This document shows, piece by piece, positions 2,106-62,988 of a stretch of DNA of 64,000 nt. The stretch lies in the NCBI GenBank assembly GCA_032622095.1, contig CP136064.1:7371512-7435511 (forward strand). The letters are read 5' to 3'. The position numbers and the translations under genes are program-made. The stretch comes from Siphonodentalium dalli. Taxonomy: Eukaryota; Mollusca; Scaphopoda; Gadilida; Siphonodentaliidae. The notes under the pieces are model-generated. The model did no database searches. It worked only from the letters and a program-made list of their open reading frames with translations, and was not told the DNA's origin. Every line of letters starts with the position of its first letter. Position 1 is the first letter of the stretch.

Positions 2106-30728
<28,623 letters not shown>

Positions 30729-42448: not shown

Positions 42449-43228
42449 CGTGGCTGCGGGCTGACGCCAGGTGGTTCGTGGCTGCGGGCTGACGCCAGGT
42501 GGTTCGTGGCTGCGGGATGACGCCAGGTGGTTCGTGGCTGCGGGCTGACGCCATGTGGTTCGTGGCTGCGGGATGACGCCAGGTGGTTCGTGGCTGCGGA
42601 CTGACGCCAGGTGGTTCGTGGCTGCGGTCTGACGCCAGGTGGTTCGTGGCTGCGGGCTGACGCCATGTGGTTCGTGGCTGCGGGCTGACGCCAGGTGGTT
42701 CGTGGCTGCGGGATGACGCCAGGTGGTTCGTGGCTGCGGGCTGACGCCAGGTGTTCGTGGCTGCGGGCTGACGCCAGGTGGTTCGTGGCTGCGGGCTGAC
42801 GCCATGTGGTTCGTGGCTGCGGGATAACGCCAGGTGGTTCGTGGCTGCGGTCTGACGCCAGGTGGTTCGTGGCTGCGGACTGACGCCAGGTGGTTCGTGG
42901 CTGCGGACTGACGCCAGGTGGTTCGTGGCTGCGGTCTGACGCCAGGTGGTTCGTGGCTGCGGTCTGACGCCAGGTGGTTCGTGGCTGCGGGCTGACGCCA
43001 GGTGGTTCGTGGCTGCGGGATGACACCAGGTGGTTCGTGGCTGCGGTCTGACGCCAGGTGGTTCGTGGCTGCGGGATGACGCCAGGTGGTTCGGGGCTGC
43101 GGACTGACGCCAGGTGGTTCGTGGCTGCGGTCTGACGCCAGGTGGTTCGTGGCTGCGGGCTGACGCCATGTGGTTCGTGGCTGCGGGCTGACGCCAGGTG
43201 GTTCGTGGCTGCGGGATGACGCCAGGTG
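42449..43228. repeat. 28-bp minisatellite, left part, ~28 units
   Basis: The unit is ggtggttcgtggctgcgggc plus tgacgcca. Variants ggactg, ggtctg, ggatga and ccatgt are mixed. The same array in the same orientation resumes at 59384 after the Polinton. Confidence 0.97.
43223..43228. repeat. Polinton target-site duplication, left
   Basis: CAGGTG, part of the 28-bp unit, directly before the element's first AG; it is repeated at 59384-59389. Polintons make 6-bp duplications (family knowledge). Confidence 0.93.
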
Positions 43229-44366
43229 AGAAGATATAGGGTCTCGTTCGCGTCACATCTAAAAATAGAATCTTTGGGGTCTAAAATTGGTTGTACTAAA
43301 ATATTCCCAAAATATCAAAACCCAAAAAAAAAAATTCAAAACTTCAAAAAAAAATTTTTTCCAAAAATTATTTTTTCCAAAAAATTTAAAAATTTCCAAA
43401 CTTCCAAATTATCAAAACCCCAAAATTTCCAAACTTCCAAATTATCAAAACCCCCAAAATTGTTTAAATAAAAAATTTATAACGAGTTTTCGGTTTCTGA
43501 TAATCTCGATATTAAAAAATGTCGAATGTTAAATTATTTGCGCGTAATATCTTTCGTAATATTTTTTGTTCAAATATTTTTCAAGAATTTATTAATCGAT
43601 GTTTAGAAATAGCTTTATTGGACATTGTGACCATCGATATGAATGCATACATTCCAGTGTTTTATCGGACGCAGTTCATATAATTGTCATACCTGAAAAT
43701 AGACACTATTACTTTTACATAAATAATAAAGAGCGTTTATTCTTTACACTCTCTCTATCCCATATGACAGGTGTGTATTATCGTGAATTATTGGAAGTTT
43801 TGAGATGTACTATGTTCAATCCCTAACGGTCGAAAATTGTAATGTGAAATTAGAACCCTCCAGAATGAATTGTCATATTGAATGAATGATGATTTAATCT
43901 CAGCCATTTTTACATGGAACATGAGCGATGTACACTCAATCACACACGCCACATTGGTGTTAACAATGTGTCTTTCACACCTTTGCTTTACCAAATGAAT
44001 TCTATTATTTCCCCGGTCACAGCTATATGGTATTCAGAAAACAAATCGATTTAATGTCTGAACAAAACGAGTTAGTATCAATTAAGGTTGATAAACTGTG
44101 TCATTCACGCGATAATTAGTTATCCAAAAAACATGCATACATATTACGTCAGGTCGTGAGACACTCAATTATAGAAATTGCTTTTATGACATTGTTATAA
44201 CAACATTACGTAATAACCCCTTATCACTCCATTCACACTTACGACCATTTTGTATGCCGAAAACTCCAGGTAGCACCGATGATGTAACATTATATCACTG
44301 CTATTGTACCAATGATAGGTTCAGACATATTCTATGTTTAGAGAAATAGATAATCTGCAGGTGTTC
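43229..44366. repeat. Polinton terminal inverted repeat, left
   Basis: 1138 bp, from AGAAGATATAGGGTCTCG to gcaggtgttc, matching the complement of 58261-59383. The two arms differ in an A/T run near the end and by a 3-bp AGA at the tip. It includes a 75-codon frame (43599-43826) and an opposite 68-codon frame (43788-43994), both mirrored in the right arm; whether either is expressed is unknown. Confidence 0.95.
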
Positions 44367-44572: not shown

Positions 44573-44580
44573 TATATAAG
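44573..44580 (+). promoter_or_regulatory. TATA-like box upstream of the Polinton ATPase
   Basis: tatataag lies 48 bp before the ATPase start codon in otherwise non-coding sequence just inside the left TIR. Assigned by position and sequence only. Confidence 0.4.
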
Positions 44581-44627
44581 AACTGTATAGCTCCTAATAA
44601 ATAGGACACAGTGAACACAAAAAAAAA

Positions 44628-45293
44628 ATGGGTCCAATTAACCATAGCTCCATACCATTTGAACCTTGTTCTAGTATTTGCATCACCGGACCAACTGGTT
44701 CTGGTAAGACGAGATGGGTCTACAGATTCCTGCAAAATCTTAATGGAATGTATTCTAGAGATCCACCTAAGAAAATAATGTACTGTTACGGTATTTATCA
44801 AAATTTCTATGATGAAATTGAATCATCAATCGAAAATTTGGTCATGCATCAAGGATTACCTACCCAAACAGAAATCGAAGAATTTGCTGACGGTAAACAT
44901 AATATGTTAATATTAGACGACTTGATGCATCGCATTATTGACCAAAAAGAGATTGAAACACTATTTACGCAGCAAACTCATCATCGCTGTCTTTCGGTGC
45001 TGTTTATTTCACAAAATTTATACGCACAAGGCAAGGCTGCGAGAACTATAGCCTTAAACACAGGATATCTAATTTTATTCAAAAATTTGAGGGATGGATC
45101 ACAAATTTCCACATTGGGTAGACAATTGTATCCCGGTAAATCTAAAGTACTCATTGAGGCATACAAGGATTGTATGAAGAAACCATTTGCGTATCTTATA
45201 ATAGATATGTCCCCTCACACTGAGGATAAATACAGGCTACGAACAGACGTGTTTCCCAACCAAGACCCTATAATTTACGTACCTACTACGTAA
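44628..45293 (+). CDS. Polinton packaging ATPase (FtsK/HerA, A32-like)
   Basis: 221 codons. Walker A is GPTGSGKTRW at about residues 24-33 and Walker B is MLILDDLMH at about 101-109. Length and motif spacing fit the genome-packaging ATPases of Polintons and large DNA viruses, thought to drive DNA into the capsid (family knowledge). It is the first gene inside the left TIR on the + strand and is followed after 40 bp by the next frame. Confidence 0.94.
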   Translation: MGPINHSSIPFEPCSSICITGPTGSGKTRWVYRFLQNLNGMYSRDPPKKIMYCYGIYQNFYDEIESSIENLVMHQGLPTQTEIEEFADGKHNMLILDDLMHRIIDQKEIETLFTQQTHHRCLSVLFISQNLYAQGKAARTIALNTGYLILFKNLRDGSQISTLGRQLYPGKSKVLIEAYKDCMKKPFAYLIIDMSPHTEDKYRLRTDVFPNQDPIIYVPTT

Positions 45294-45333
45294 TAAGAAG
45301 GGGACAGTATCGGAGCTGAGTCGCGACGATAAA

Positions 45334-45657
45334 ATGAGTCGATTATTACGTAATGAGTTGAATTTTGTCAGACTATTGACATCAACCCAATCAAGATCTC
45401 AACGAAACGCATTATTGACATCGATAACTAATAATCAGTTGAAAGTTCTGGTTGAAATTACGATCAATTTACTACATGATAGTTTAACAGTTACAGTTCA
45501 ACAAAAAGCTAAATTACGGCGATATAAATCATTTTATATATTCTTGAGTGATAAATCTGTGAGTTTGTTGAGGAAAAGAAAAAGTGTGAATAATCACTCA
45601 ACCGCCATTACTTTGATGTTGAACATCGTTGAACCTAAATTGAAACAGTTTTTGTGA
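45334..45657 (+). CDS. Polinton small basic protein, conserved type, function unknown
   Basis: 107 codons, rich in Lys/Arg, with a helical pattern (RNALLTSITNNQLKVLVEI, QKAKLRRYKSFYIFLSDKSV, LLRKRKSV). Small proteins of this pattern recur beside the capsid genes of Polintons and adintovirus-like elements (from memory of the family; function not established). It lies between the ATPase and the integrase. Confidence 0.6.
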   Translation: MSRLLRNELNFVRLLTSTQSRSQRNALLTSITNNQLKVLVEITINLLHDSLTVTVQQKAKLRRYKSFYIFLSDKSVSLLRKRKSVNNHSTAITLMLNIVEPKLKQFL

Positions 45658-45800: not shown

Positions 45801-46025
45801 ATGGATAAAGAAATGGACCCGATGAATAATCAGATTGTTAATACAGTTCAAACGACTGAACCTCAGGATGCAATCCAAAAATCAGAAGTTAACACATCGA
45901 AAAAGACACGTACCAAGCAAAGAAAAAAGAAAATAAGAGGAGTTAAGCGTGAAATATCTAGACCTCCTGGTATAATCGCCGGTAAGCTGACCAAGATAAA
46001 GAAGAAACGTTGGCTATCACTGTGA
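45801..46025 (+). CDS. Polinton lysine-rich small frame
   Basis: 74 codons with a strongly basic C-terminal half (KKTRTKQRKKKIRGVKREI, RPPGIIAGKLTKIKKKRW). It overlaps the start of the integrase by 16 bases. The composition suggests nucleic-acid binding, but no domain is recognised. Confidence 0.45.
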   Translation: MDKEMDPMNNQIVNTVQTTEPQDAIQKSEVNTSKKTRTKQRKKKIRGVKREISRPPGIIAGKLTKIKKKRWLSL

Positions 46026-47140
46026 ACAATATGGCCGATTGGAAAGATTATTTGAGTTCAATTTATTTTAATCCGGGTCACCCCGCATCGTACTCAGGAG
46101 CTACAAAGTTGCATCAGACTGTAAAATCTGAAAATAAGCACAACATTTCCAAGCGCGAGATTGTGACGTGGCTACAAAATCATGAAAGTTATTCCCTGAC
46201 AAAAAGTGTTAGACGAAAATTCCCGAGGTCTCGTGTTATTGTAAACGCTTCTGACAGTCAATGGGATGGAGACCTCATGGATATGAATGATGTTTCCAAA
46301 GACAACGACAATTACACCTACGTGTTAGTAATGATTGACATTTTTTCTAGGAAGTTATGGTGTGAAGCTATAAAGAGGAAAACTGCAATTAATGTGATCA
46401 ATGCTATGAAACATATATTTGAAGGTGGAAGAACCCCGCGCGTCCTCCGAACGGATCGCGGTTCGGAGTTCACAAACAAACGGGTCAAAAGTTACCTAAA
46501 GGGTCTTCATATATCTCAAATGTTTACTCAAAACGAAATGAAAGCCAATTATTCGGAACGGGTCATAAAAACTATAAAGCAGAAGATTTCGCGTTATATG
46601 ATAAAGCATAATAATGCTAGATATATCGACATTCTACAAGATATTGTGAAAAGTTATAACCATACAATACATCGTTCGTTAGGCACCACCCCTGACTCCA
46701 TAACTGTTGAGAATGAAGATGAGTCTCGTCTCGATCAGTGGTTAATAAGACAGAAGGGAGGTGTTAAAAGTAAATTGAAGAAAAAGTTCAAATACAATGT
46801 AAATGATATCGTTAGAATATCACACACCAAAGCAGTTTTTGACCGAGAATATTTTCAGAAATGGACTGGAGAGTTGTTCAAAGTGACTAAGAGGTTTTAC
46901 AGGCAGAACATACCCTTGTATACATTGACAGATTTCTTGGATGAAAACATTGAGGGTGCTTTCTACGAGTCAGAACTTCAAGGGGTGCGCGTTGATGACG
47001 AAACAGTTTACAGAATAGATAAAATTGTCAAAAAGAGGAAACGAAAGGGTCAAACTGAAGTCCTGGTGCACTGGCATTCATGGCCTGACAAATTTAATTC
47101 ATGGATTTTAGAGTCTGATGTCGACAGATATCAAAATTAA
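46010..47140 (+). CDS. Polinton integrase (rve) with C-terminal chromodomain
   Basis: 376 codons. The N-terminal region (KREIVTWLQNHESYSL, VRRKFPRSRVIV) is typical of Polinton integrases. The DDE core runs through DGDLMDM, RTDRGSEFTNK and ANYSERVIKTIKQKISRY, giving D, D and E. After a basic linker, about residues 335-375 form a chromodomain (VYRIDKIVKKRKR, EVLVHWHSWPDKFNSWILES) with the aromatic residues expected for histone-tail binding. Integrases of this family insert the element and make 6-bp duplications (family knowledge), matching the CAGGTG found here. Confidence 0.95.
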   Translation: MAITVNNMADWKDYLSSIYFNPGHPASYSGATKLHQTVKSENKHNISKREIVTWLQNHESYSLTKSVRRKFPRSRVIVNASDSQWDGDLMDMNDVSKDNDNYTYVLVMIDIFSRKLWCEAIKRKTAINVINAMKHIFEGGRTPRVLRTDRGSEFTNKRVKSYLKGLHISQMFTQNEMKANYSERVIKTIKQKISRYMIKHNNARYIDILQDIVKSYNHTIHRSLGTTPDSITVENEDESRLDQWLIRQKGGVKSKLKKKFKYNVNDIVRISHTKAVFDREYFQKWTGELFKVTKRFYRQNIPLYTLTDFLDENIEGAFYESELQGVRVDDETVYRIDKIVKKRKRKGQTEVLVHWHSWPDKFNSWILESDVDRYQN

Positions 47141-47179
47141 TAAGAGCAAGCTATCCGAGGGGGGGAAACCATTACAATC

Positions 47180-47572
47180 ATGAATAATAGAACAGATACC
47201 TTGACGAATATGTTTCAAACAGAACGCGGTCGTCTACATATGAATCTCCTTAAATGGATAGGAATTACGATTATGGTAATAACTCTGTCACTACCGGTTA
47301 TAATAGTTCCAAAGAAGATACCACGTCAGACGGGGGACTATGAATTACGGCATACGAACGAGTCACGCCCCTCTGATTACGAACAACACCCCTGTGGGTT
47401 CGTGAAAAAGTGGACAATACGATCAAACATTACTGTTACATTATGTAATAATCAAGGGCGCATTTATACACGCATTAGGCGAGTTGTGAATAACACTCCC
47501 GCGATTATAAGTATTCCGTTGACCAGTGGTCTGCCTTCAAGTATATATTCAGTGATGTTGATAAAACTATAA
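47180..47572 (+). CDS. Polinton membrane-segment protein, unknown
   Basis: 130 codons with one hydrophobic stretch (WIGITIMVITLSLPVIIVP, about residues 30-48), followed by a polar domain with Cys residues and a C-terminal hydrophobic segment. It sits between the integrase and minor capsid genes. It could be a virion membrane or minor structural protein; no family recognised. Confidence 0.5.
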   Translation: MNNRTDTLTNMFQTERGRLHMNLLKWIGITIMVITLSLPVIIVPKKIPRQTGDYELRHTNESRPSDYEQHPCGFVKKWTIRSNITVTLCNNQGRIYTRIRRVVNNTPAIISIPLTSGLPSSIYSVMLIKL

Positions 47573-47623
47573 GAGAAGAGATGAACATTGATTCTCATTT
47601 GAAACAAAATAGAAACTAGTCAT

Positions 47624-48061
47624 ATGGATAATTATTATCTGTACCTGACTAGCGACGATTCCATAGATAAATATCCAGATAATCGTCCTCTCGACTTCAC
47701 AATAGAGTTACCTGGTGTATTAATATTGGAAGGGGCGTGGTTATGTTGTTTGAAAGACATAAACATAACTGACCATATAGACACGGATTTATTATATATT
47801 TGTTCGGACATATGTGGAGAATCAATAGCCTGCGACACATCATACCCCATCCTCCGGGTTATAAAGAGAGACACACGTGATACGGGTCATTGGCGGAGTT
47901 TTGAGGACTCATTCTACATAAACGTAAGACAGGATAAACTTCAGCGTCTCAGGATTTTTATAAGAGGCGATAAACTTTCTAAAATAAATGCAGAAAAAAG
48001 AGTGACCTGTACACTACATCTGAAGAAACATGTCGATCACGTATATTCCAGCCGATATTGA
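47624..48061 (+). CDS. Polinton minor capsid (penton-like) protein
   Basis: 145 codons. The N-terminal pattern YLYLTSDDSIDKYPDNRPLD then FTIELPGVLILEGAWLCCL matches Polinton penton proteins, whose start reads S-DS--YP-N---F---LP--I-L-G-WE--L (family knowledge). Such proteins form a single jelly roll at capsid vertices. It lies two genes before the major capsid gene, the usual neighbourhood. Confidence 0.8.
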   Translation: MDNYYLYLTSDDSIDKYPDNRPLDFTIELPGVLILEGAWLCCLKDINITDHIDTDLLYICSDICGESIACDTSYPILRVIKRDTRDTGHWRSFEDSFYINVRQDKLQRLRIFIRGDKLSKINAEKRVTCTLHLKKHVDHVYSSRY

Positions 48062-48332
48062 AATGTGGCGAAAACATTTCAGGGACATGATTAATGGGAA
48101 GTTAACGCCAGATAATGAGGGTCGCTACTTTATTGACAAAACTCAAAATAGCGATAGTGAAGAAGAAGACGTTCTAAAACCACATATTAACGTAGTGACA
48201 CCCATAGCGCAAGCGATTGAAATGGCCAAAGCAGAAGTTGCAGAAAATAAGTTGACACAAGCACGTAAGACGTCAAAAAAAACAATAAGAGGGTGTTACC
48301 TAACGATTTGGCTCATAACCCTAAGAAAGTGA
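48030..48332 (+). CDS. Polinton small virion-type protein, unknown
   Basis: 100 codons overlapping the end of the minor capsid gene. It starts ITYIPADIEMWRKHF, has an acidic stretch (DSEEEDV) and a basic tail (ARKTSKKTIRG). Similar short frames lie between penton and major capsid genes in other Polintons, as far as I recall. Function unknown. Confidence 0.5.
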   Translation: MSITYIPADIEMWRKHFRDMINGKLTPDNEGRYFIDKTQNSDSEEEDVLKPHINVVTPIAQAIEMAKAEVAENKLTQARKTSKKTIRGCYLTIWLITLRK

Positions 48333-48357: not shown

Positions 48358-49620
48358 ATGAATGAATACAGAGAGTACCATACCTCTAAATTGGCATTAT
48401 TTGAATCGCCCACGGTTGACAGCGGAATACAAGCGACAGAATGGATAAACTACAGACCCGTGAATCAGCTGACAGACACTGCAGCTTTAGAGTTCAATAT
48501 TCCCGCCATGGCCACAACCTACATGGACCTCAAACGGACATTGCTACTTCTCAAACTCAAAATAACCAAGCAAGATGGTTCGGCTCTAACCGTTAATGAC
48601 GATGTGGGTCTGATAAATGCACCCCTACATTCAATATTTTCGCAGGTCGATTTGAATATACAGCAAGTTCCCGTGAGTCAAGTCGGTCCGAATTATCCAT
48701 ACAAAGCATATTTCGATGTACTCTTAGAAACTGAACGTAAGGAACAGCTACATGGACAAGCGTTCGAAAAGGACACGGCAGGTGGTATGGACCTGGCAGA
48801 TTCGAAAAGCGGGAACTCTGGCCTGTATTACAGGTCCAAAACAACCCGTACTAGTCAAATAATGGATATTATGGGATCAATTCAGCTTGACTTCTTCCAA
48901 CAGGACAAATTACTACTAAATGGTCTCCCGCTCACGTTAAAATTCTGGCAGACGAGAGATGTTTTTAGACTGATGTATGCGGGAACCACTGAGACATACA
49001 AGTTGAAAATACAGGAAGCTAATTTGAGACTAGCCACTGTGAAAGTTAACCCCGGTGTATTACTCAGTCATACTGAGTCACTCAAGAAAAAGAACGCGTG
49101 TTATCCTTTTTCAAAATCTATCATAAAGACGTATACAGTGTCAAAAGGTGCATTCAGTTTGGGAGAAGATAATCTATTTCAAGGAAACGTACCCAGTAGC
49201 TGTATTATTGGCTTAGTATCATCAAAGGCTGAAAGCGGTTCACGCGATAAGAACCCGTTCAACTTTGCGACTTTTGGATGCAACTTCGTCGGATTTTACG
49301 TCAACGGGCAGTCTATGCCCGCCCAAGCACTCCAACCGAACTTTACCAGTAAGGAATATGTAGAAGCTTACAATACGATAATAAAAGATGCCAAACGAAA
49401 AGCCGTTCATATTACTTATGAGGATTATGCGAAAGGTTATTGCATATATCGGATAAACCCGCAAGGAATTAATCACGACAGGGTCATACCACACAAAGGT
49501 CACACACGCCTCGAAATTAAATTCTCATCGGCTTTGAAAGACAATTGTACTGTAATCGTATACGCAAAATTTCCTGCCGTTCTCAAAGTTGACGAGAGTC
49601 GTAAAGTTTGCATTGAATAA
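48358..49620 (+). CDS. Polinton major capsid protein (double jelly roll)
   Basis: 420 codons. Conserved family pattern near the N terminus: ALEFNIPAMATTYMDLKRTL, LLLLKLKI, then DDVGLINAPLHSIFSQVDLN. Length and pattern fit the hexon-like double jelly-roll proteins that form the capsid shell in Polintons and related viruses. Its stop codon overlaps the start of the protease gene (TAATG), so the two are tightly coupled. Confidence 0.92.
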   Translation: MNEYREYHTSKLALFESPTVDSGIQATEWINYRPVNQLTDTAALEFNIPAMATTYMDLKRTLLLLKLKITKQDGSALTVNDDVGLINAPLHSIFSQVDLNIQQVPVSQVGPNYPYKAYFDVLLETERKEQLHGQAFEKDTAGGMDLADSKSGNSGLYYRSKTTRTSQIMDIMGSIQLDFFQQDKLLLNGLPLTLKFWQTRDVFRLMYAGTTETYKLKIQEANLRLATVKVNPGVLLSHTESLKKKNACYPFSKSIIKTYTVSKGAFSLGEDNLFQGNVPSSCIIGLVSSKAESGSRDKNPFNFATFGCNFVGFYVNGQSMPAQALQPNFTSKEYVEAYNTIIKDAKRKAVHITYEDYAKGYCIYRINPQGINHDRVIPHKGHTRLEIKFSSALKDNCTVIVYAKFPAVLKVDESRKVCIE

Positions 49621-50066
49621 TGAATACACGCGGACTCATGAGGGCGATAAATAGTTTCACAAACCATAATGAGATAGATGTTTGTCCCTTAGACAAATTA
49701 CCTCTTTATATCCAATATCCCCGGATGTATATAGTTAACACAGACGAGAGTAGCCAACCTGGACGCCACTGGATATTGATGACATTCCAGGAACATAACG
49801 TATCAGAGTTCTTCGACCCTATGGGATTAAAACCCGAGTGTTACAACGGACGATTTAAACACGTGTTGTTATTGAATGGACCTCGTTACGAGTGCAATGC
49901 TTACAGATTACAGCGTTCTAATATATGTGGTCCCTATTGCATATACTTTGCATTCTATAAACTGTGCGGATACAGTCTAGAAAATATAATGAGACGTTTC
50001 AGTGCCAATAATTATATGTATAATGATTTAATTATTAAGGATTTTATGTTGAAATATATTCTGTAA
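49620..50066 (+). CDS. Polinton cysteine protease (adenain/Ulp1-like)
   Basis: 148 codons. Catalytic residues are visible in order: His in GRHWILMTF (about residue 56), Asp in FFDPMGL, Gln in YRLQRSN, Cys in NICGPYCIYF. This is the adenovirus-type maturation protease layout. It starts inside the major capsid stop codon and is the last + strand gene before the - strand block. Confidence 0.93.
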   Translation: MNTRGLMRAINSFTNHNEIDVCPLDKLPLYIQYPRMYIVNTDESSQPGRHWILMTFQEHNVSEFFDPMGLKPECYNGRFKHVLLLNGPRYECNAYRLQRSNICGPYCIYFAFYKLCGYSLENIMRRFSANNYMYNDLIIKDFMLKYIL

Positions 50067-50409: not shown

Positions 50410-50934
50410 TTATTCTGAAAGTAATTCAAGTTCACATATGGTAGGATATACAATATTTAACATCTGCTTTTCACTTTTAATGCCCGTAATCACAATTTTT
50501 CCATTATGAAAGCATGTAAAATGTATTTTCTCACGTCTGAACATTGCCGCAGGGAACAGCTCTAATTCGTAAGAACATTCCATAAGTTTCACTAAAATGT
50601 TTAAGTCAAGTTTTCCATTTAACTGACAAAATGCAGACATTGTCAAAATTTTTATGGAATTTAATCTCACTCGCCAACCACATTTTTGAATATGTCGAGC
50701 GTACCGACGCAATCGAACTCGTGTCTGTTTGACACTATCAGAAAGCCCGTTAACAACGATTTTACCCGTGTTAAACACGAGGCAACATCCACCGAATTTA
50801 GAATGTTTCCATACAACTCCGCTAAACTTTTTGGAATTGTATTCAATGTTTGAACAGCCGAGTGTCAAATCCCTTAGATTAATAGAACAGTTCAAATCTG
50901 CAGAACATACGACATTAGTTATTCGTAGCATCAT
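50410..50934 (-). CDS. TATA-binding-protein-like protein encoded by the Polinton
   Basis: 174 codons with the two-fold saddle repeat of TBP. Repeat 1 runs from ITNVVCSADLNCSINL through EYNSKKFSGVV, LVFNTGKIVVNG and RRYARHIQKCGW. Repeat 2 runs through SYELELFPAAMFRR, FTCFHNGKIVITG and YPTICELELL. The four Phe residues that kink TATA DNA in TBP all align: F37, F54, F127, F142 (spacing 17 in repeat 1 as in eukaryotic TBP; 15 in repeat 2). TBP nucleates transcription complexes (family knowledge). Here it may direct transcription of the element's own genes, which is inference. It begins 11 bp after the stop of the PC4-like gene on the same strand, suggesting co-expression. It has no acidic or Gln-rich N-terminal tail and is strongly diverged from host TBP. 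Confidence 0.92.
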   Translation of the reverse strand: MMLRITNVVCSADLNCSINLRDLTLGCSNIEYNSKKFSGVVWKHSKFGGCCLVFNTGKIVVNGLSDSVKQTRVRLRRYARHIQKCGWRVRLNSIKILTMSAFCQLNGKLDLNILVKLMECSYELELFPAAMFRREKIHFTCFHNGKIVITGIKSEKQMLNIVYPTICELELLSE

Positions 50935-50945
50935 AGGAGTAATGT

Positions 50946-51557
50946 TTAGATCAATGTCTGCATCCGGTTAATCAAACACGTTCTATCGCCGTTGGGGCAG
51001 CATTCCATACATCTTAAAGATCCTTCCTGGTTTTGGTGATCGTCGGTCAAATAGCACTGCACAGTCTGATCAATTTCAGGAATATTAGCACACAGGACGA
51101 ATATAGCTCCAACTAGTTCTTCAAATTGGTCGAATGTCAGAGATATTCCGTATTTGGTTGCACACAAATCATCTGAATGTTCAGGCAGCCAATACCTGCG
51201 AATGTCAACACGCGGGATGCCGCTCTTTATCGTAATGAAGAAATTCCCTCCGATATGACGTCTCATGAATACATCGTCTTCACCGGTACGATAACTGACC
51301 ACTTCTTGATGTATATCTGCTAAGTAAGATTTCAACTCTTTGAATCTCCTTAGATTTAATGTTATTCCAGATTTTGTCGGAAATTTATGGCCCGCAGAAC
51401 TTTCACCGCACTCTCGTATGTGTATATACAGATTTCCCTGGAATCGGCCGTCAAATAGGAAAATGTCATTTCCTAACGGGGCCAAGCATTGTGGATGGAA
51501 CGCCCTCTCGTTGGTTTCAGTCCGTTGGTTTCCTTCAACATCGGGTTGATCAGTCAT
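50946..51557 (-). CDS. Double PC4-like (SUB1/p15) protein encoded by the Polinton
   Basis: 203 codons from the ATG at 51557 (MTDQPDVEG); codons upstream of it look non-coding. Two PC4-type domains follow. One has FLFDGRFQGNLYIHIRE, then PTKSGITLNLRRFKELKSYL. The second has VFMRRHIGGNFFITIKS, VDIRRYW, then ATKYGISLTFDQFEELVGAI. Human PC4 has the same order: a strand ending in IDIREYW, then KGISLNPEQWSQL. PC4 binds single-stranded DNA and assists transcription as a dimer (family knowledge); fusing two domains could replace dimerisation. The C-terminal tail is Cys-rich (CMECCPNGDRTC). Adjacent to the TBP-like gene. Confidence 0.85.
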   Translation of the reverse strand: MTDQPDVEGNQRTETNERAFHPQCLAPLGNDIFLFDGRFQGNLYIHIRECGESSAGHKFPTKSGITLNLRRFKELKSYLADIHQEVVSYRTGEDDVFMRRHIGGNFFITIKSGIPRVDIRRYWLPEHSDDLCATKYGISLTFDQFEELVGAIFVLCANIPEIDQTVQCYLTDDHQNQEGSLRCMECCPNGDRTCLINRMQTLI

Positions 51558-51662: not shown

Positions 51663-51808
51663 ATGTTGGGTGTGGGGGGAGGCCCGCCCCCGCCCGCCCT
51701 GGGGAGGGGGAGGCCCGCCCGCCCCGCCCGCCCGCCCGCCCTGGGGAGGGGAGGCCCGCCCGCCCCCGCCCGCCCTGGGGAGGGGGAGGCCCGCCCCCCC
51801 CGCCCGCA
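51663..51808. repeat. GC-rich minisatellite (gcccgccctggggaggggga-like unit)
   Basis: About four imperfect units of ggaggcccgcccgccc-type sequence of roughly 40 bp. Its base composition is unlike the AT-rich element around it. The frame across it is open but low-complexity. Confidence 0.85.
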
Positions 51809-51852
51809 TACTCAATAAGAATAAGAAAATTGAGTCATTGAGTCAGTTCATT

Positions 51853-52215
51853 ATGGAGAGAATACTACCCGCAGAAATACTGGAGAAAATATACAATCAG
51901 CTAATTGAAATGTCAACTATAAATCCAGAAATAAAAAAACAACTACTACACAATTGGTTTATAAGAGAAATTAAAATAATACTGAAGAATATAGATGAAG
52001 GATATTTTCCTGTACAACGATTGAAATCTTTGATTGCTAGGTCTGAATTTGAAACTGATTTCTTACAGGATATATTGAATCAAATGTATTCAAATCGCTG
52101 GGTATTTAGAGGCGTTCCTAAAAACAAAATACATGACATTCGTGAACTTATTGGAGATAACTTTGTGAGATTTGCAGAATACCGAGACTGGGTTTTTCAA
52201 TCAGAGAAGTTTTGA
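51853..52215 (+). CDS. Polinton accessory frame, F-box-like start, unknown
   Basis: 120 codons from the first ATG after the GC-rich repeat. The start RILPAEILEKIYNQL resembles the opening helix of F-box proteins (LPxEILxKI), but the rest (REIKIILKNIDEGYFPVQRL, MYSNRWVFRGVPKNKIHDI) matches nothing I know. The frame is read on the + strand within the - strand block, so it may be an accessory gene. A second frame overlaps its end. Confidence 0.45.
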   Translation: MERILPAEILEKIYNQLIEMSTINPEIKKQLLHNWFIREIKIILKNIDEGYFPVQRLKSLIARSEFETDFLQDILNQMYSNRWVFRGVPKNKIHDIRELIGDNFVRFAEYRDWVFQSEKF

Positions 52216-52802: not shown

Positions 52803-55544
52803 TCAATATCCATATGGCAGTGTATCCATGTTATCCAATCGTCTGCGTTTGGTATAAACAACTCGGTACTGTTTGTCCTCAGATCTGTTATATATCTTTC
52901 TTTTTCCTTTCGATCTGCATATTTTCCTTGAATTGGTTGTGGTGATGGGCACTGTGCTTCCAGATTCTAACAGCTCTTTAATCGTCTGGAAATTGATGAA
53001 CTGTGAATTTTCAAAGTTCAAAGAGAACCCCCGAACTTTACACGTCTCTTTAGCTTTATTTGTTCGATAAGCGTAATTCTTGGGGCCTCCAGAAACAAAT
53101 TCTTCGATGTATTCGTCAGGATCTAGCTCGCTGGTGAGTTGGCCCAAATAGTCGCCCAGTGGGGGATTAATTTGATCCTCAGTGCTGCTAAATACACAAC
53201 TATCCGTGTCGTAATATAATACTCTTCTGTCCAAGGAATGAATAACTTCATATAGCATTAATCGAGCGTGACACGTCGTGAATGTGGCCAAATATATGTT
53301 ATTCGCTGCTCCGCAAGGCACACAGTCTTTTCGATAGGTCCACTCCATTTGAAGAATGTCATCAGTTATGACATGAACATTTTCCATTTGTTTCATTGGA
53401 TTTGAAATGAGCTGGAATAGATTGTCTTGTTCCGATTCATGGAAATACTCGGTCTGCTTGAAATTCTGGTTTTGGCCTAGCTTCCCCCAAAATGAGTTGA
53501 GCATGAGCTTGCTGATTTGCCTCAGTCCTGGATTCTTTTCGATGCTTTCTCTGTCCAGTAATATACCTTCGTTGTCTTTATACGATGTGATGTATTTATC
53601 CATGTCTTCGTTAGATTTTATCCAATCCGGAGGACCGCTAGCCTGCTGCTTGAACTTTAGGAATGTGTTTATATATTCCGTGAATAATCCATTTTGTTGG
53701 CTATAGTCTGACGTTTCGGTCCAATGGTATATTTCATATATTTTGAGAATCTTGTATCCCACTTTGACAGCTGTCTCCAGTTCAGGAATACACCAAACGC
53801 CGGTAATGGCTCTCTGTTGGCACGTACACGTGCAAGGTCGTTGATTTTCATTATCAGCACAAGTCCTGCACAGTGGAAACTTCAGTTTACCTTCGGATCG
53901 ATACGGTAATACGGGGTGATAGAGTCCATTAGGTGGTAAAATCTTGACTTGCGCTATTCCGAAGTAATCCTTAAGCTCGGTAATGTCATCGCCCAAAATG
54001 ATTTTAGGGTGTCCAATCGGATAGCGAGAGTATTTGAGCACACTTGGATACAGCGACGTGAAATCAAAATAGTGTATTTTCTCACCAACGGCAGCTTTGT
54101 AGTGTAATTTAGTTGCATTCGTTCTGCCGCCGAAGAAACTGTCTCTAGGCTCTAGCCGCTCAACAATGTCTAAACTAGCGATGAAGTCACGAAGCTCCGG
54201 ATTAGTCTTTCGAGCAGCGACGAACTCGTGTTCCCAAATGCACACATATTTCATGCCTCGACTTTCTATAAACTTCTTCTTTTTCTGTGTGAGTCCGTAT
54301 AATTCATTAGGTGTCTGGTTGGTTATCGGATTCTTGACTATGTCTCTGTCGTGACTCAGACAAAGTTCACATCCATGGAATTGACAGCCGTGAAATTCGA
54401 ATGCCGTGTTTAATTCTTCGCAATAACCATCCAATCTGTACTTTGCATCATCGAGTTTCTTTTCACGGCCGTTCAATGCGTGAGTTATGTGAACTTTGTC
54501 TTTGAACATCAGCCATTCCAGCCATTGAATAGAACTTTTGCTGTATTGATCTTTATACGATGTCTTGGGGATTCGAGCTATCTGGGATTTGAGAAATTCT
54601 TTCTCACGAATTTGGACGCCGCGTTCATCTTGAAGTTTTGTGTCTTGAACCCATTCACCTTTGTATAAAATAGACAAGGTTCCATCTTTACATTTAGCAG
54701 GAAGCCACGTTTTCCCTTCGGTACTTAGACGCACTCTCCATTCCTCGTCGACGAATTTCGTTCTGAATATACCCATACATACCGATGCGATTGTAACGTA
54801 TTGGAATGGATCAACCGCACCGACCAGTTTGAACTTCATATCGCCAGAAAACTCGTCAATTACGGGTTGTATATTTCCAGTCGCATTCATGATGTGGGTT
54901 CTGAATTTTATGCAAGCTTGTCTCAAAATATTGACATCACTACGACAATAATCCGATAATTCTTTCTTGAAGATGAAAACTGCATTTGTTTGAGCAGCGT
55001 GCCATTTCGTGAAGTCTTTTCGTTCAGCCACACTCATATAATCAGCGCCGTAATATTTGGCATCCGGATAGGGTCCTTCATAATTCTGGTTGGCTGATTT
55101 ATTGAAAAAGTGCGGGAACCATCCTTTTTTCTCGCCATCAAGACCGAAAGTTTTCGGTAACAGTGCCAGCTTCATTGGTAGAAAGCTGAGACTGTCCAGT
55201 ACTTTTATATGAAGATCTTTTTCCACGTATAGGTACATCAATTTGGATCCATTATATATAACTTTGGATTGATCAATGAGATATTCCATGAGAAAATATC
55301 CATCGTAACCCTTGAAGTTGTGAGCCAGTGCTATGAACCCTTTGTGTTGTTCCGAGAATAACCATTTTCCAAACTTTTCACCGGTATCAGGACCGCTAAA
55401 TATAACCTCTCGGAGTCCGCATGTATCCGAACATAAATTTCGGTCACTCTTCTTTTTCTTCTTCTTGTCATCACTGTCGATACACGCATCACATAGAGGT
55501 CCGCAATTTCTACAGTTCGGTTTCACTTCCAACGATTCATGCAT
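52803..55544 (-). CDS. Polinton DNA polymerase B, main block (exonuclease II/III and polymerase domains)
   Basis: 913 codons. Visible motifs in order: ExoII-like HNFKGYDGYFLMEYL (about residue 74), ExoIII-like YCRSDVNILRQAC, polymerase motif A DFTSLYPSVLKY, motif B KLMLNSFWGKLGQN, and motif C YYDTDSCVF. These are the residues of family B, protein-primed polymerases of Polintons and adenoviruses (family knowledge), which copy the element from a terminal-protein primer. An upstream coding block on the same strand (56249-58015) holds the first exonuclease motif. Whether the two are exons or separate pieces cannot be settled from sequence alone. Confidence 0.93.
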   Translation of the reverse strand: MHESLEVKPNCRNCGPLCDACIDSDDKKKKKKSDRNLCSDTCGLREVIFSGPDTGEKFGKWLFSEQHKGFIALAHNFKGYDGYFLMEYLIDQSKVIYNGSKLMYLYVEKDLHIKVLDSLSFLPMKLALLPKTFGLDGEKKGWFPHFFNKSANQNYEGPYPDAKYYGADYMSVAERKDFTKWHAAQTNAVFIFKKELSDYCRSDVNILRQACIKFRTHIMNATGNIQPVIDEFSGDMKFKLVGAVDPFQYVTIASVCMGIFRTKFVDEEWRVRLSTEGKTWLPAKCKDGTLSILYKGEWVQDTKLQDERGVQIREKEFLKSQIARIPKTSYKDQYSKSSIQWLEWLMFKDKVHITHALNGREKKLDDAKYRLDGYCEELNTAFEFHGCQFHGCELCLSHDRDIVKNPITNQTPNELYGLTQKKKKFIESRGMKYVCIWEHEFVAARKTNPELRDFIASLDIVERLEPRDSFFGGRTNATKLHYKAAVGEKIHYFDFTSLYPSVLKYSRYPIGHPKIILGDDITELKDYFGIAQVKILPPNGLYHPVLPYRSEGKLKFPLCRTCADNENQRPCTCTCQQRAITGVWCIPELETAVKVGYKILKIYEIYHWTETSDYSQQNGLFTEYINTFLKFKQQASGPPDWIKSNEDMDKYITSYKDNEGILLDRESIEKNPGLRQISKLMLNSFWGKLGQNQNFKQTEYFHESEQDNLFQLISNPMKQMENVHVITDDILQMEWTYRKDCVPCGAANNIYLATFTTCHARLMLYEVIHSLDRRVLYYDTDSCVFSSTEDQINPPLGDYLGQLTSELDPDEYIEEFVSGGPKNYAYRTNKAKETCKVRGFSLNFENSQFINFQTIKELLESGSTVPITTTNSRKICRSKGKRKIYNRSEDKQYRVVYTKRRRLDNMDTLPYGY

Positions 55545-56248
55545 GCATTCGTAGCAAGCTGTTTGGGCGACGAGGAAGTTCGGTGTATGCTGGACTTTTC
55601 CGCACCATGTTTTTAAACAGTTCTGAAAAGTAATAATTGAACGTTTTAACCTCTAGCTTTATCGATAATAAAAAACAAAATAAAACGTCTACACTTTGTT
55701 TAAATAATTATTTAAAAAAAAAAAAAAAATTAAAAAAAAGGTTTTGGTATGGGTTCAACGTTAATAAAGAGCGTTGACGTATTACTATTGTTTGTTGGTT
55801 GATCCTAAAAAATTACTCGTTCCAATCTACGTGTCAATATTATAAATGTATATCATGATCCGACATATAGCCTGTATAATTAACGATTCAAGCACACAGC
55901 TATCAAGTTAAATAAAGTTAAAACAATTATATATTATGTTAGTTTACTATATAACAATTACAAAATGTCTTTTCACAAAAAAATATGTTACACATTTTTT
56001 CAATGTGTCAAGAATTAAAAAAGTTAATTACTCGGTTTAACATCTGTGACTCAGTTGAATTTTAATATTGAGACCCCTTAACTTTGGTCGAATTCAAGTA
56101 TGTAATTGTTATATGGTAATATAACACGCGAGGTAACAGCTAAAGAGCGTTCAGCGATAATCTAATTTAAAAAAAATGAAAGAGCGTCTCTACTTATGCG
56201 CGCCTTTAATAAAGAGCGTTACGTTATCACGATTTCGACTGTAATGTG
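55545..56248. other. Non-coding stretch between polymerase blocks
   Basis: AT-rich, with poly-A/T runs and several copies of an aataaagagcgtt-like motif (about 55761, 56141, 56178, 56206). No independent gene seen. Confidence 0.5.
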
Positions 56249-58015
56249 TTACATATATATATATATTACAATTAGGTTAAGACTCACCTGACACTTAGCA
56301 CATTTCTTGCATATATGATCCTCTTTACAGTCCTGGCAATCCTTCGTATGTAAAGGTGCATATCCTTCAGAACATTCCAATATATCATGTTGAATGGTTT
56401 CGAAGTCGAAGAAACAGAATTTAGCTCTTTCATCATCAGTAACGGGAGGTATGGCCCTTACATAGCATTCGTGTGGTCCCATTGTGTATTTGTCACACGA
56501 TCTACAAAATGTTTCTCCGCACACGTGTTGATTCGGACGTCTTTTCCGTCTCTCCATGACTTTTGTACAGTCCAAACATTTCCACCATTTTTGACAAGGA
56601 GCTGTGGTTTCTCCCGAAGCTTGATTAATAGGTTTTGCTTTATGACGCACGAAACATTGATGAGACATACACGTCATATTACAATCTGAACAATGTTCTT
56701 TGTTTCCACTTTGTTCACATTTATCACTTTTACACACGAAACAGGTGTGTTCACAATAATGCGTTCCTTTGGTTGAATAATGTTTTAAACAATGCACACA
56801 GAAATATATTGCGCTAAAGAATCCCGTTATGGATTGTATAGCGTGGAAATGTTCATTAGCAGTGAGATATAAATATATCACGGGTCTTTCTATACCGTCT
56901 GTAGGCGCGCTGGTAATGAATTTATTACCCAGTCTAGCACTGACGACTAGTATTGTCAAATTCAGAGTTTCCTCGAATGCTTTTAGATCTGCTAAACTGG
57001 CTGGTCTGTCTGTTGATACACCTGCGATGACACTAATTGCTTTGGCTAATTTTCCTTGCTCCGTACGTTTTTGGTGCCGCACATTTTTGTAATAATTGAT
57101 CGGTACTTTTCTGTATTCCATGATGAGTTGTAAATTATTTCTGGTTCCTCTATTCTGTGTTATTTCCATCCATTCATCAGGACTGCAAATATTTAATTTA
57201 CACCAACATGTGGCGATAGCCCGTGCCATACACATATTGTCGGTATTTTCAATCGTAACGATCGATGTTTTATTTCTTAGAATGTCACTTTCATCATGTA
57301 AAGCCGTTATCCTCCTCCGTGCTCCGCCTTTAGGTAACTCGATGGTGCCTATATCTATTCGGAAACTTTGATTAACAGTCAGTGTTTGGTTGCTGTTCAA
57401 AACGAGTTCGATTCTGTCAATCACAGTGTTAGCATTTAACGTTTGCAACGTTTGTAACGGAACTACTATAGGGTTGTCCAAACTCTCATGGTGAATGATA
57501 ACTCTGCCAAGATCATTGTCAGCCAACTTTCCACGAGCTCTTTGAATAGTGTCCTCGAACATTGAATGTAGATTCCTGTATATGTCGATTAACTTTTTCT
57601 CTTTGTAAATTTCATCTAATTTGATCTCATATGTTCTCTGTGTTGCCAAATTGTTTCCGAAGATTCGTTCACTCCTTTTGCGAATGCTATATCCAGTTAT
57701 TTGATTATCAGAACTGTCGGCTGTTTGATTGTCTGATTTTACAGCTCCTTCTTCGTCTTCTCGGTTTTGTAATCCTGATGGTCCAGCTGTACCGGGTTGT
57801 GAGTTGTTAACATCATTTTTAGACGCATCATGTTCTCCGTATCCGATTTGGTTCGGCCATGGGTCATCTCCTGAACAAAGCGTAGATGCTTCAATTATAT
57901 CTTCATCCAGTTGATAAGCTACGATAGCCTTGTCGTATTCTTCGATGTCTTGCAGAATACATTCTATTTCATAAATTTCATCCACTGTCAGAGGTGTCAT
58001 TATTTCTTCAGCCAT
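56249..58015 (-). CDS. Polinton DNA polymerase B, N-terminal block
   Basis: 588 codons. The first half has no clear domain, as is usual for the N-terminal region of Polinton polymerases, where the terminal-protein-like part is thought to lie. Then come Cys/His-rich clusters (CVHCLKHYSTKGTHYCEHTC, CSDCNMTCMSHQCF, CRSCDKYTMGPHEC), and finally the ExoI motif FCFFDFETIQHD. It begins about 245 bp inside the right TIR on the - strand. Confidence 0.88.
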   Translation of the reverse strand: MAEEIMTPLTVDEIYEIECILQDIEEYDKAIVAYQLDEDIIEASTLCSGDDPWPNQIGYGEHDASKNDVNNSQPGTAGPSGLQNREDEEGAVKSDNQTADSSDNQITGYSIRKRSERIFGNNLATQRTYEIKLDEIYKEKKLIDIYRNLHSMFEDTIQRARGKLADNDLGRVIIHHESLDNPIVVPLQTLQTLNANTVIDRIELVLNSNQTLTVNQSFRIDIGTIELPKGGARRRITALHDESDILRNKTSIVTIENTDNMCMARAIATCWCKLNICSPDEWMEITQNRGTRNNLQLIMEYRKVPINYYKNVRHQKRTEQGKLAKAISVIAGVSTDRPASLADLKAFEETLNLTILVVSARLGNKFITSAPTDGIERPVIYLYLTANEHFHAIQSITGFFSAIYFCVHCLKHYSTKGTHYCEHTCFVCKSDKCEQSGNKEHCSDCNMTCMSHQCFVRHKAKPINQASGETTAPCQKWWKCLDCTKVMERRKRRPNQHVCGETFCRSCDKYTMGPHECYVRAIPPVTDDERAKFCFFDFETIQHDILECSEGYAPLHTKDCQDCKEDHICKKCAKCQVSLNLIVIYIYM

Positions 58016-58260: not shown

Positions 58261-59383
58261 GAACACCTGCAGATTATCTATTTCTCTAAACATAGAATAT
58301 GTCTGAACCTATCATTGGTACAATAGCAGTGATATAATGTTACATCATCGGTGCTACCTGGAGTTTTCGGCATACAAAATGGTCGTAAGTGTGAATGGAG
58401 TGATAAGGGGTTATTACGTAATGTTGTTATAACAATGTCATAAAAGCAATTTCTATAATTGAGTGTCTCACGACCTGACGTAATATGTATGCATGTTTTT
58501 TGGATAACTAATTATCGCGTGAATGACACAGTTTATCAACCTTAATTGATACTAACTCGTTTTGTTCAGACATTAAATCGATTTGTTTTCTGAATACCAT
58601 ATAGCTGTGACCGGGGAAATAATAGAATTCATTTGGTAAAGCAAAGGTGTGAAAGACACATTGTTAACACCAATGTGGCGTGTGTGATTGAGTGTACATC
58701 GCTCATGTTCCATGTAAAAATGGCTGAGATTAAATCATCATTCATTCAATATGACAATTCATTCTGGAGGGTTCTAATTTCACATTACAATTTTCGACCG
58801 TTAGGGATTGAACATAGTACATCTCAAAACTTCCAATAATTCACGATAATACACACCTGTCATATGGGATAGAGAGAGTGTAAAGAATAAACGCTCTTTA
58901 TTATTTATGTAAAAGTAATAGTGTCTATTTTCAGGTATGACAATTATATGAACTGCGTCCGATAAAACACTGGAATGTATGCATTCATATCGATGGTCAC
59001 AATGTCCAATAAAGCTATTTCTAAACATCGATTAATAAATTCTTGAAAAATATTTGAACAAAAAATATTACGAAAGATATTACGCGCAAATAATTTAACA
59101 TTCGACATTTTTTAATATCGAGATTATCAGAAACCGAAAACTCGTTATAAATTTTTTATTTAAACAATTTTGGGGGTTTTGATAATTTGGAAGTTTGGAA
59201 ATTTTGGGGTTTTGATAATTTGGAAGTTTGGAAATTTTTAAATTTTTTGGAAAAAATAATTTTTGAAGTTTTGAATTTTTTTTTTGGGTTTTGATATTTT
59301 GGGAATATTTTAGTACAACCAATTTTAGACCCCAAAGATTCTATTTTTAGATGTGACGCGAACGAGACCCTATATCTTCTTCT
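58261..59383. repeat. Polinton terminal inverted repeat, right
   Basis: 1123 bp, the complement of the left arm. The mirrored 75-codon frame (58801-59028, - strand) and 68-codon frame (58633-58839, + strand) encode the same peptides as in the left arm. It ends in ...TATATCTTCTTCT. Confidence 0.95.
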
Positions 59384-59389
59384 CAGGTG
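59384..59389. repeat. Polinton target-site duplication, right
   Basis: CAGGTG directly after the terminal CT, identical to 43223-43228. Removing the element and one copy restores an uninterrupted 28-bp unit. Confidence 0.93.
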
Positions 59390-62300: not shown

Positions 62301-62988
62301 GTTCGTGGCTGCGGGATGACGCCAGGTGGTTCGTGGCTGCGGGATGACGCCAGGTGGTTCGGGGCTGCGGGATGACGCCAGGTGGTTCGGGGCTGCGGGC
62401 TGACGCCAGGTGGTTCGTGGCTGCGGGCTGACGCCAGGTGGTTCGTGGCTGCGGGCTGACGCCAGGTGGTTCGTGGCTGCGGGCTGACGCCAGGTGGTTC
62501 GTGGCTGCGGGCTGACGCCAGGTGGTTCGTGGCTGCGGGATGACGCCAGGTGGTTCGTGGCTGCGGGATGACGCCAGGTGGTTCGGGGCTGCGGGATGAC
62601 GCCAGGTGGTTCGGGGCTGCGGGCTGACGCCAGGTGGTTCGTGGCTGCGGGCTGACGCCAGGTGGTTCGTGGCTGCGGGCTGACGCCAGGTGGTTCGTGG
62701 CTGCGGGCTGACGCCAGGTGGTTCGTGGCTGCGGGCTGACGCCAGGTGGTTCGTGGCTGCGGGCTGACGCCAGGTGGTTCGTGGCTGCGGGCTGACGCCA
62801 GGTGGTTCGTGGCTGCGGGCTGACGCCAGGTGGTTCGGGGCTGCGGGCTGACGCCAGGTGGTTCGTGGCTGCGGGCTGACGCCAGGTGGTTCGTGGCTGC
62901 GGGCTGACGCCAGGTGGTTCGTGGCTGCGGGCTGACGCCAGGTGGTTCGTGGCTGCGGGCTGACGCCAGGTGGTTCGGGGCTGCGGGA
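59384..62988. repeat. 28-bp minisatellite, right part, ~129 units
   Basis: Same unit and strand as 42449-43228. Frames of 1289 and 1244 codons on the - strand cross it because three units (84 bp) make 28 codons with no stop in the frames concerned. Variant units (ttcggggctg, ggactg, gcaggctg, gatgaatcc) occur in repeated blocks, for example around 60067 and 60766, so larger blocks were duplicated. Confidence 0.97.

What the first reader, a model, noticed from the sequence alone, without database searches (positions are those of the whole stretch)
50410..50934. A Polinton that encodes its own TATA-binding-protein-like factor
The 174-codon frame aligns with both halves of TBP and keeps all four DNA-intercalating Phe (F37, F54, F127, F142), the saddle GK-V-NG/GK-V-TG strands, and the ELFP turn. 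TBP homologues are known in some giant DNA viruses; I do not recall one as part of the standard Polinton gene set. Such a factor could let the element recruit host RNA polymerase to its own promoters. The family assignment is strong; the role is inference.
Basis: partly seen in the sequence, partly recalled or inferred. Interest (0 to 1): 0.92.

Follow-up and report, generated by a model that had tools for sequence, protein, structure and literature searches.

The report
Polinton carrying its own TBP gene
A 16-kb virus-like transposon in what is probably a bivalve genome carries its own version of TBP, the protein that marks where gene reading starts, apparently retuned so that it could switch on the element's own late genes through the host's machinery.

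Summary

The protein belongs to a separate family (window plus 28 of 30 hits; 100/100 branch against four cellular TBPs). The family keeps both TFIIB-contacting Glu (27 of 29 each), positions reported as variable in viral TBPs. It replaces groove-reading residues (yeast N159 to T in 29 of 29, V161 to S/T in 29, L205 to T/S in 25, T124 to N in 22); three of these sites are also changed in KSHV's late TBP mimic.

ATAAGA lies within 110 nt upstream of 7 of 8 rightward genes and 0 of 3 leftward ones. I propose a late-promoter switch: the element's TBP reads this box and recruits host TFIIB and Pol II. The box rests on one element; no binding was tested. No Polinton TBP was seen in the papers searched.

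The parts
50410..50934 (-). TBP-like protein, 174 aa, two TBP repeats
50946..51557 (-). protein with two PC4 coactivator domains, next gene upstream of TBP on the same strand, 11 nt between the two
   Evidence: PF02229 E 3.3e-15 whole; halves 3.6e-8 and 1e-5
43229..44366 (+). left terminal inverted repeat, starts AGAAGA
58261..59383 (-). right terminal inverted repeat, starts (AGA)3 read inward
43223..43228 (.). target site duplication CAGGTG, left copy, inside a 28-bp minisatellite
59384..59389 (.). target site duplication CAGGTG, right copy
44628..45293 (+). packaging-type P-loop ATPase (sub-threshold match)
   Evidence: Pox_A32 17.6 bits, below its cut-off 22.8; AAA_22 E 2e-4, also below its cut-off
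45334..45657 (+). p107, unknown ORF of the rightward block
   Evidence: ORF; no Pfam hit above cut-off
46031..47140 (+). integrase with chromodomain
   Evidence: rve E 8.1e-15, Chromo E 8.1e-8; searches used 46037 as its start
47180..47572 (+). p130, unknown ORF of the rightward block
   Evidence: ORF; no Pfam hit above cut-off
47624..48061 (+). p145, possible penton/minor capsid protein (a guess by eye)
   Evidence: ORF; no Pfam hit
48030..48332 (+). p100, unknown ORF overlapping p145
   Evidence: ORF; no Pfam hit
48358..49620 (+). major capsid protein, double jelly roll
49620..50066 (+). adenovirus-type protease (sub-threshold match)
   Evidence: Peptidase_C5 20.0 bits, just below cut-off 21.3
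52803..55544 (-). PolB, polymerase part
   Evidence: PF03175 E 1e-51
56249..58015 (-). upstream ORF of the presumed PolB region, about 0.7 kb away from the polymerase ORF; not joined or read through
   Evidence: ORF; no Pfam hit
51853..52215 (+). p120, possible small rightward gene
   Evidence: ORF; no Pfam hit
44575..44582 (+). candidate box TATAAGAA (ATPase, -52)
45292..45299 (+). candidate box AATAAGAA (p107, -41), overlaps the ATPase stop
45932..45939 (+). candidate box AATAAGAG (integrase, -98)
47139..47146 (+). candidate box AATAAGAG (p130, -40), overlaps the integrase stop
47568..47575 (+). candidate box TATAAGAG (p145, -55), overlaps the p130 stop
47959..47966 (+). candidate box TATAAGAG (p100, -70)
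48284..48291 (+). candidate box AATAAGAG (MCP, -73)
51814..51827 (+). two overlapping candidate boxes (p120, -38 and -32)

Best explanation
The gene encodes a genuine TBP-superfamily protein that the Polinton uses as its own promoter-recognition factor. Proposed mechanism: the leftward genes (PolB, PC4, TBP) are transcribed first by ordinary host Pol II. The element's TBP then binds a TATA-like box, (A/T)ATAAGA(A/G), about 40-100 nt upstream of the start codons of the rightward capsid, packaging and integration genes. It binds through the standard saddle and four Phe but with a more polar groove-reading face, and hands over to host TFIIB (or Brf) through the retained stirrup glutamates. The PC4 protein helps as a coactivator. 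Shown: family, fold, kept and changed residues, position in a young element with the Polinton hallmarks, motif statistics. Inferred: expression, DNA binding, TFIIB binding, the early/late labels (from gene content), the PC4 role.
For: TBP family and fold. Glutamates at yeast 186/188 kept in 27 of 29 each, L189 in 25 of 29, all present in the window protein; PMC7221094 names these positions (human E284/E286) as TFIIB contacts. Groove-facing changes: N159T 29 of 29, V161S 28 plus T 1, L205 to T 15 or S 10, T124N 22 of 29; the four cellular TBPs have N, V, L, T there. KSHV ORF24 has N at T124, N at V161 and S at L205 and reads TATTWAA late promoters (PMC12529657 sections 4 and 15). ATAAGA precedes 7 of 8 rightward-block starts within 110 nt; in 300 order-2 and 300 order-3 randomisations no hexamer reached 7 (means 3.6 and 3.8), rotation test P 0.008; it is over-represented on the sense strand of that block (10, expected 4.7, P 0.03) and absent from the coding strand of the leftward block (0, expected 3.9, P 0.03). 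Three control stretches around the same starts reach 4 of 8 at best. 0 of 3 leftward genes have it within 160 nt. Tandem PC4 neighbour.
Against: The box was found after the fact in one element; no DNA of a relative was available to repeat the test. The best 7-mers are not significant (P 0.057-0.21). Three of the seven boxes overlap the TAA stop of the preceding gene, and an AATAAA likewise overlaps the stop of the TBP gene (read), so a 3'-end signal is possible. The protease gene has no box. The TFIIA-contact Glu (human E191, recalled) is R or K in 20 of 29 family members, though E in the window. None of the 30 TBP hits shares a longest-contig length with the 55 capsid hits, so a Polinton setting is shown only for the window. 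No expression data.
Confidence: 0.6

Rival explanations
1. It is a TBP that works at ordinary TATA boxes, simply supplying extra TBP to the element (or to Pol III through Brf), without special promoter specificity.
For: Four Phe, N69 and V71 and the TFIIB glutamates are kept; PolB has TATAAAAATA at -80 and the ATPase has TATATAAG.
Against: The groove-reading face is changed in a family-wide way; canonical TATAWAW is not significantly enriched upstream of the element's genes (3 of 12, P 0.07 and 0.11).
Confidence: 0.2
2. The protein interferes with host transcription or host regulators (competes with host TBP for TFIIB, Mot1, NC2), a host-manipulation role rather than promoter recognition.
For: The basic helix RRYAR is largely kept (R76 25, R77 22, R80 25 of 29); PMC7221094 places host-regulator binding on basic N-lobe residues, some in that helix (exact positions not mapped here).
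Against: The DNA-intercalating Phe are conserved (25-28 of 29), which titration alone would not need; the motif evidence.
Confidence: 0.08
3. It binds the element's ends or replication origin (DNA bending for replication, packaging or integration), not promoters.
For: TBP-fold proteins bend DNA (established knowledge); the TIRs look AT-rich (by eye).
Against: TFIIB-contact residues would not need to be kept for such a use.
Confidence: 0.06
4. A recently captured or decaying host TBP/TRF copy that happens to sit in the element.
For: Mavericks carry accessory genes (vertebrate ones, PMC8097293).
Against: Intact frame; 33% identity to human TBP but 38-58% to 30 other sequences, 28 of which form with it one side of a 100/100 branch against four cellular TBPs.
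Confidence: 0.04
5. The ATAAGA motif is a 3'-processing or stop-codon-linked signal of the preceding gene, unrelated to the TBP.
For: Three of seven boxes overlap the preceding TAA; genes are head to tail; the AATAAA of the TBP gene also overlaps its stop (read).
Against: The ATPase, first gene of the block, has the box with no recognised gene before it; the MCP, p100, integrase and ATPase boxes do not overlap a stop; an ordinary AATAAA follows the protease stop (read).
Confidence: 0.3

Closest known systems
Cellular eukaryotic TBP (human, yeast, Arabidopsis, Encephalitozoon)
   Different: About 30-33% identity; N159, V161, L205, T124 replaced; no N-terminal extension; carried by a Polinton
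KSHV ORF24 / beta- and gammaherpesvirus late TBP mimics (PMC12529657)
   Same: TBP fold with kept Phe and replacements by Asn or Ser at T124, V161, L205; reads a non-canonical late box in the published case
   Different: ORF24 is a 752-aa multidomain protein that lacks the TFIIB glutamates and binds Rpb1 itself; the Polinton protein is a bare TBP core that keeps them; N159 is kept in ORF24 and is T here; L114 and V122 are changed in ORF24 and kept in the window protein
TBPs of Nucleocytoviricota and mirusviruses
   Same: DNA-virus-encoded TBPs
   Different: Viral structural matches shown (50 rows) are at most 22% identical; PMC7221094 reports variable TFIIB contacts and frequent own TFIIB genes; no TFIIB-like match among the ORFs of this element that were scanned with Pfam
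Metazoan Polintons/Mavericks/adintoviruses
   Same: TIRs, 6-bp TSD, PolB, integrase, ATPase-like, protease-like, DJR capsid; two gene modules on opposite strands pointing to the centre, as in vertebrate Mavericks (PMC8097293 section 7)
   Different: TBP and tandem-PC4 genes; ATPase lies in the capsid/integrase module here, in the PolB module in vertebrate Mavericks
PC4/Sub1 transcriptional coactivator
   Same: Two PF02229 domains in the adjacent gene
   Different: Tandem domains in one chain; only weak match to solved PC4 (E 0.0035)

Membership tests
TBP superfamily (PF00352) | Significant profile match over both repeats | tested here: met
   E 3e-32, two stretches
TBP superfamily (PF00352) | Pseudo-twofold saddle fold | tested here: met
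TBP superfamily (PF00352) | Four intercalating Phe | tested here: met
   F37, F54, F127, F142
Cellular-type TATA-reading TBP | Central minor-groove contacts N69, V71, L114, T124, N159, V161, L205, T215 | tested here: not met
   N69, V71, L114, T215 kept; T124N, N159T, V161S, L205T
Cellular-type TATA-reading TBP | TFIIB-contact glutamates 186 and 188 | tested here: met
   E123, E125; 27 of 29 each in the family
Cellular-type TATA-reading TBP | Binds and bends TATA DNA | not testable with these tools
   needs binding assays
KSHV ORF24-type late TBP mimic | No TFIIB glutamates, extra DNA-binding C-terminal domain | tested here: not met
   174-aa bare core; glutamates present
Polinton/Maverick | Long TIRs and 6-bp target duplication | tested here: met
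Polinton/Maverick | Family B DNA polymerase | tested here: met
   PF03175 E 1e-51; whether the whole gene is intact was not examined
Polinton/Maverick | RVE integrase | tested here: met
   E 8.1e-15
Polinton/Maverick | A32-type ATPase and adenovirus-type protease | tested here: inconclusive
   17.6 bits vs cut-off 22.8 and 20.0 vs 21.3
Polinton/Maverick | Double-jelly-roll major capsid protein | tested here: met

The most novel reading that the evidence does not exclude
A lineage of animal Polintons carries a self-contained late-promoter switch: a bare-core TBP whose groove-reading surface was rebuilt with polar residues (at three positions also changed in herpesvirus late TBP mimics) so that it reads an (A/T)ATAAGA(A/G) box in front of the capsid, packaging and integrase genes, while still docking on host TFIIB, aided by an element-encoded tandem PC4. 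It would be a one-protein orthogonal promoter system built on host Pol II.
Probability: 0.42. Interest if true: 0.9.

Novelty: new variant of a known kind. Interest (0 to 1): 0.8.

Why it matters
How Polintons turn on their capsid genes, and whether they run an early/late programme like viruses, is to my knowledge an open question. A dedicated TBP plus a candidate box makes it directly testable with one protein and short DNA probes. It adds a new setting to the known dsDNA-virus TBPs. It also gives a family of at least 29 TBP cores that keep the TFIIB handshake while replacing DNA-reading residues, natural material for asking how TBP specificity can be changed.

Tried and rejected
Genomic context of the other family members: eight scans of viral contigs (five with the TBP family, one with cellular TBPs, one with the ATPase, one with the capsid) and two of genome contigs with the TBP family gave no confirmed locus. 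In 'phages' the TBP matched only three haloarchaeal virus records and the capsid none. So the Polinton association is shown for the window alone. I compared longest-contig lengths of the 30 TBP hits and 55 capsid hits by eye as a substitute for linkage; none coincide, so there is no linkage evidence.

PC4 relatives: the homologue search had 16 candidates and none at E 0.001 or better, so its distribution is unknown.

Canonical TATA enrichment was tested and is not significant. The 7-mers behind ATAAGA are not significant. NCBIfam gave only TBP models below their cut-offs for the TBP and nothing for five other ORFs. Selection (dN/dS) could not be measured for lack of relatives' DNA.

A recently captured host gene is disfavoured by the tree, but that tree has only four cellular TBPs and one haloarchaeal virus TBP on a very long branch, whose position means nothing; TRF2, mollusc TBP and giant-virus TBP sequences were not in it.

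Of the 30 TBP hits, P0027 and P0030 (121 and 148 aa) were left out of alignment, tree and counts; of 55 capsid hits, 41 went into the structure alignment.

Full report

A SECOND TRANSCRIPTION GENE. Immediately upstream of the TBP gene on the same strand, with 11 nt between them, lies a gene with two PC4 coactivator domains (PF02229 E 3.3e-15 for the whole; 3.6e-8 and 1e-5 for its halves).

THE TBP FAMILY. The protein search found 30 proteins with E up to 1e-5, 38-58% identical, each with PF00352, 27 of the 30 between 169 and 183 aa. Twenty-eight of these 30 (two partial ones left out) and the window protein lie on one side of a branch of length 1.99 with support 100/100, four cellular TBPs and a haloarchaeal virus TBP on the other. 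The window protein is 33% identical to the human core. Viral structures (BFVD) are more distant: 22% identity at most in the 50 rows shown, best TM 0.80. So the family looks like neither a recent host copy nor a giant-virus TBP, but the reference sampling is thin.

WHAT IS KEPT AND WHAT IS CHANGED (n = 29). Kept: N69 29, V71 29, T215 28, F99 25 (plus 3 Tyr), F116 28, F190 26, F207 26, and the stirrup glutamates 186 and 188, 27 each. Changed against all four cellular TBPs: N159 to Thr in 29, V161 to Ser in 28 and Thr in 1, L205 to Thr in 15 or Ser in 10, T124 to Asn in 22 and Gln in 4; V122 varies widely. [quoted passage not shown] The Polinton family shows the reverse pattern: handshake kept, reading face changed. 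PMC12529657 (abstract and sections 4, 15, 16 read) lists the KSHV late TBP mimic ORF24 with Asn at T124, Asn at V161 and Ser at L205, recognising TATTWAA late promoters, and lacking the TFIIB glutamates. Three of the four positions changed here are thus changed there too; N159 is not. Against: the TFIIA-contact Glu (human E191, recalled) is Arg or Lys in 20 of 29, though Glu in the window.

A CANDIDATE BOX. Among all hexamers, ATAAGA covers most upstream regions: 8 of 12 genes within 130 nt (null maximum mean 5.1, P 0.007; 7 of 12, P 0.017, for 100 nt; 8 of 12, P 0.037, for 160 nt; 7-mers P 0.21, 0.057, 0.097). In the rightward block it lies within 110 nt upstream of 7 of 8 starts. In 300 order-2 and 300 order-3 randomisations no hexamer reached 7 (means 3.6 and 3.8), and rotating the starts gives P 0.008 (searches took 46037 for the integrase start, the first ATG is 46031, used). 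Three control stretches around the same starts reach 4 of 8 at best. None of the three leftward genes has it within 160 nt; PolB instead has TATAAAAATA at -80. Extended form (A/T)ATAAGA(A/G), at -40 to -98 of the seven starts. Canonical TATAWAW is not significantly enriched (3 of 12, P 0.07 and 0.11). In the rest of the window (1-42300) ATAAGA is common too (42 on plus, 16 on minus), so its position, not its presence, is the evidence. Weak points: one element, post-hoc motif, three boxes overlapping the preceding stop codon, as an AATAAA overlaps the stop of the TBP gene (read).

MECHANISM. Most likely the leftward genes are read early by the host machinery; the element's TBP then marks the rightward promoters through the ATAAGA-type box and recruits host TFIIB and Pol II, with the PC4 protein as helper. 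Shown: gene, fold, residues, element, motif statistics. Inferred: every biochemical step and the early/late order. The parallel with herpesvirus late transcription is in logic, not membership: ORF24 is a large multidomain protein without the TFIIB contacts.

PRINT CHECK. Full-text searches for Polinton with TATA-binding protein (3 papers), with TBP, Polintons with PC4, broader combinations of which I saw only the top of the list where it was long (30 of 844, 20 of 110, 9 of 10, 20 of 581, 10 of 1,969, 3 of 3) and Polinton with late promoter (10 of 11, listing only) showed no Polinton-encoded TBP. Opened at passages: PMC10675990 (TBP genes sporadic in elements of putative mirusvirus origin in an alga), PMC10132985 (TBP in 59% of mirusvirus genomes), PMC11464507 (giant-virus TBP), PMC12220804 (nothing relevant). 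Word searches of PMC10120064, PMC4642659 and PMC7805220 found no TATA or TBP. PMC7786948 and PMC12085832, also listed, were not opened. The adintovirus paper was not held. Subscription papers and repeat-database entries were not searched, so prior mention cannot be excluded.

VERDICT. Observation confirmed; the TBP identity is certain for practical purposes; the role is a well-motivated hypothesis with a specific, testable box.

Noticed in passing
50946-51557 (-): Tandem PC4-domain protein next to the TBP gene; no homologue at E 0.001 or better in the protein search.
   Followed up: partly
42447-43228 and 59384-62987: The Polinton is inserted in a 28-bp minisatellite array (28 copies left, about 129 right) that is open in several frames, giving long spurious ORFs.
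   Followed up: partly
51682-51807: GC-rich 34-bp tandem repeat inside the element between PC4 and the p120 ORF, unlike the AT-rich rest.
   Followed up: no
52803-58015 (-): PolB region lies in two ORFs about 0.7 kb apart; an intron or a break, not examined further.
   Followed up: no
4454-5760 (+): ORFs that look like a non-LTR retrotransposon reverse transcriptase (FADDLVLL motif, by eye).
   Followed up: no
18263-19117: Long tandem array open on both strands (YPILYT / HIIHNIS repeats).
   Followed up: no
P0021, P0038, P0042 (protein collection): TBP-family and capsid relatives named as Sedimenticola or Solemya velum gill symbiont proteins; perhaps host (bivalve) Polinton contigs inside symbiont assemblies.
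   Followed up: partly
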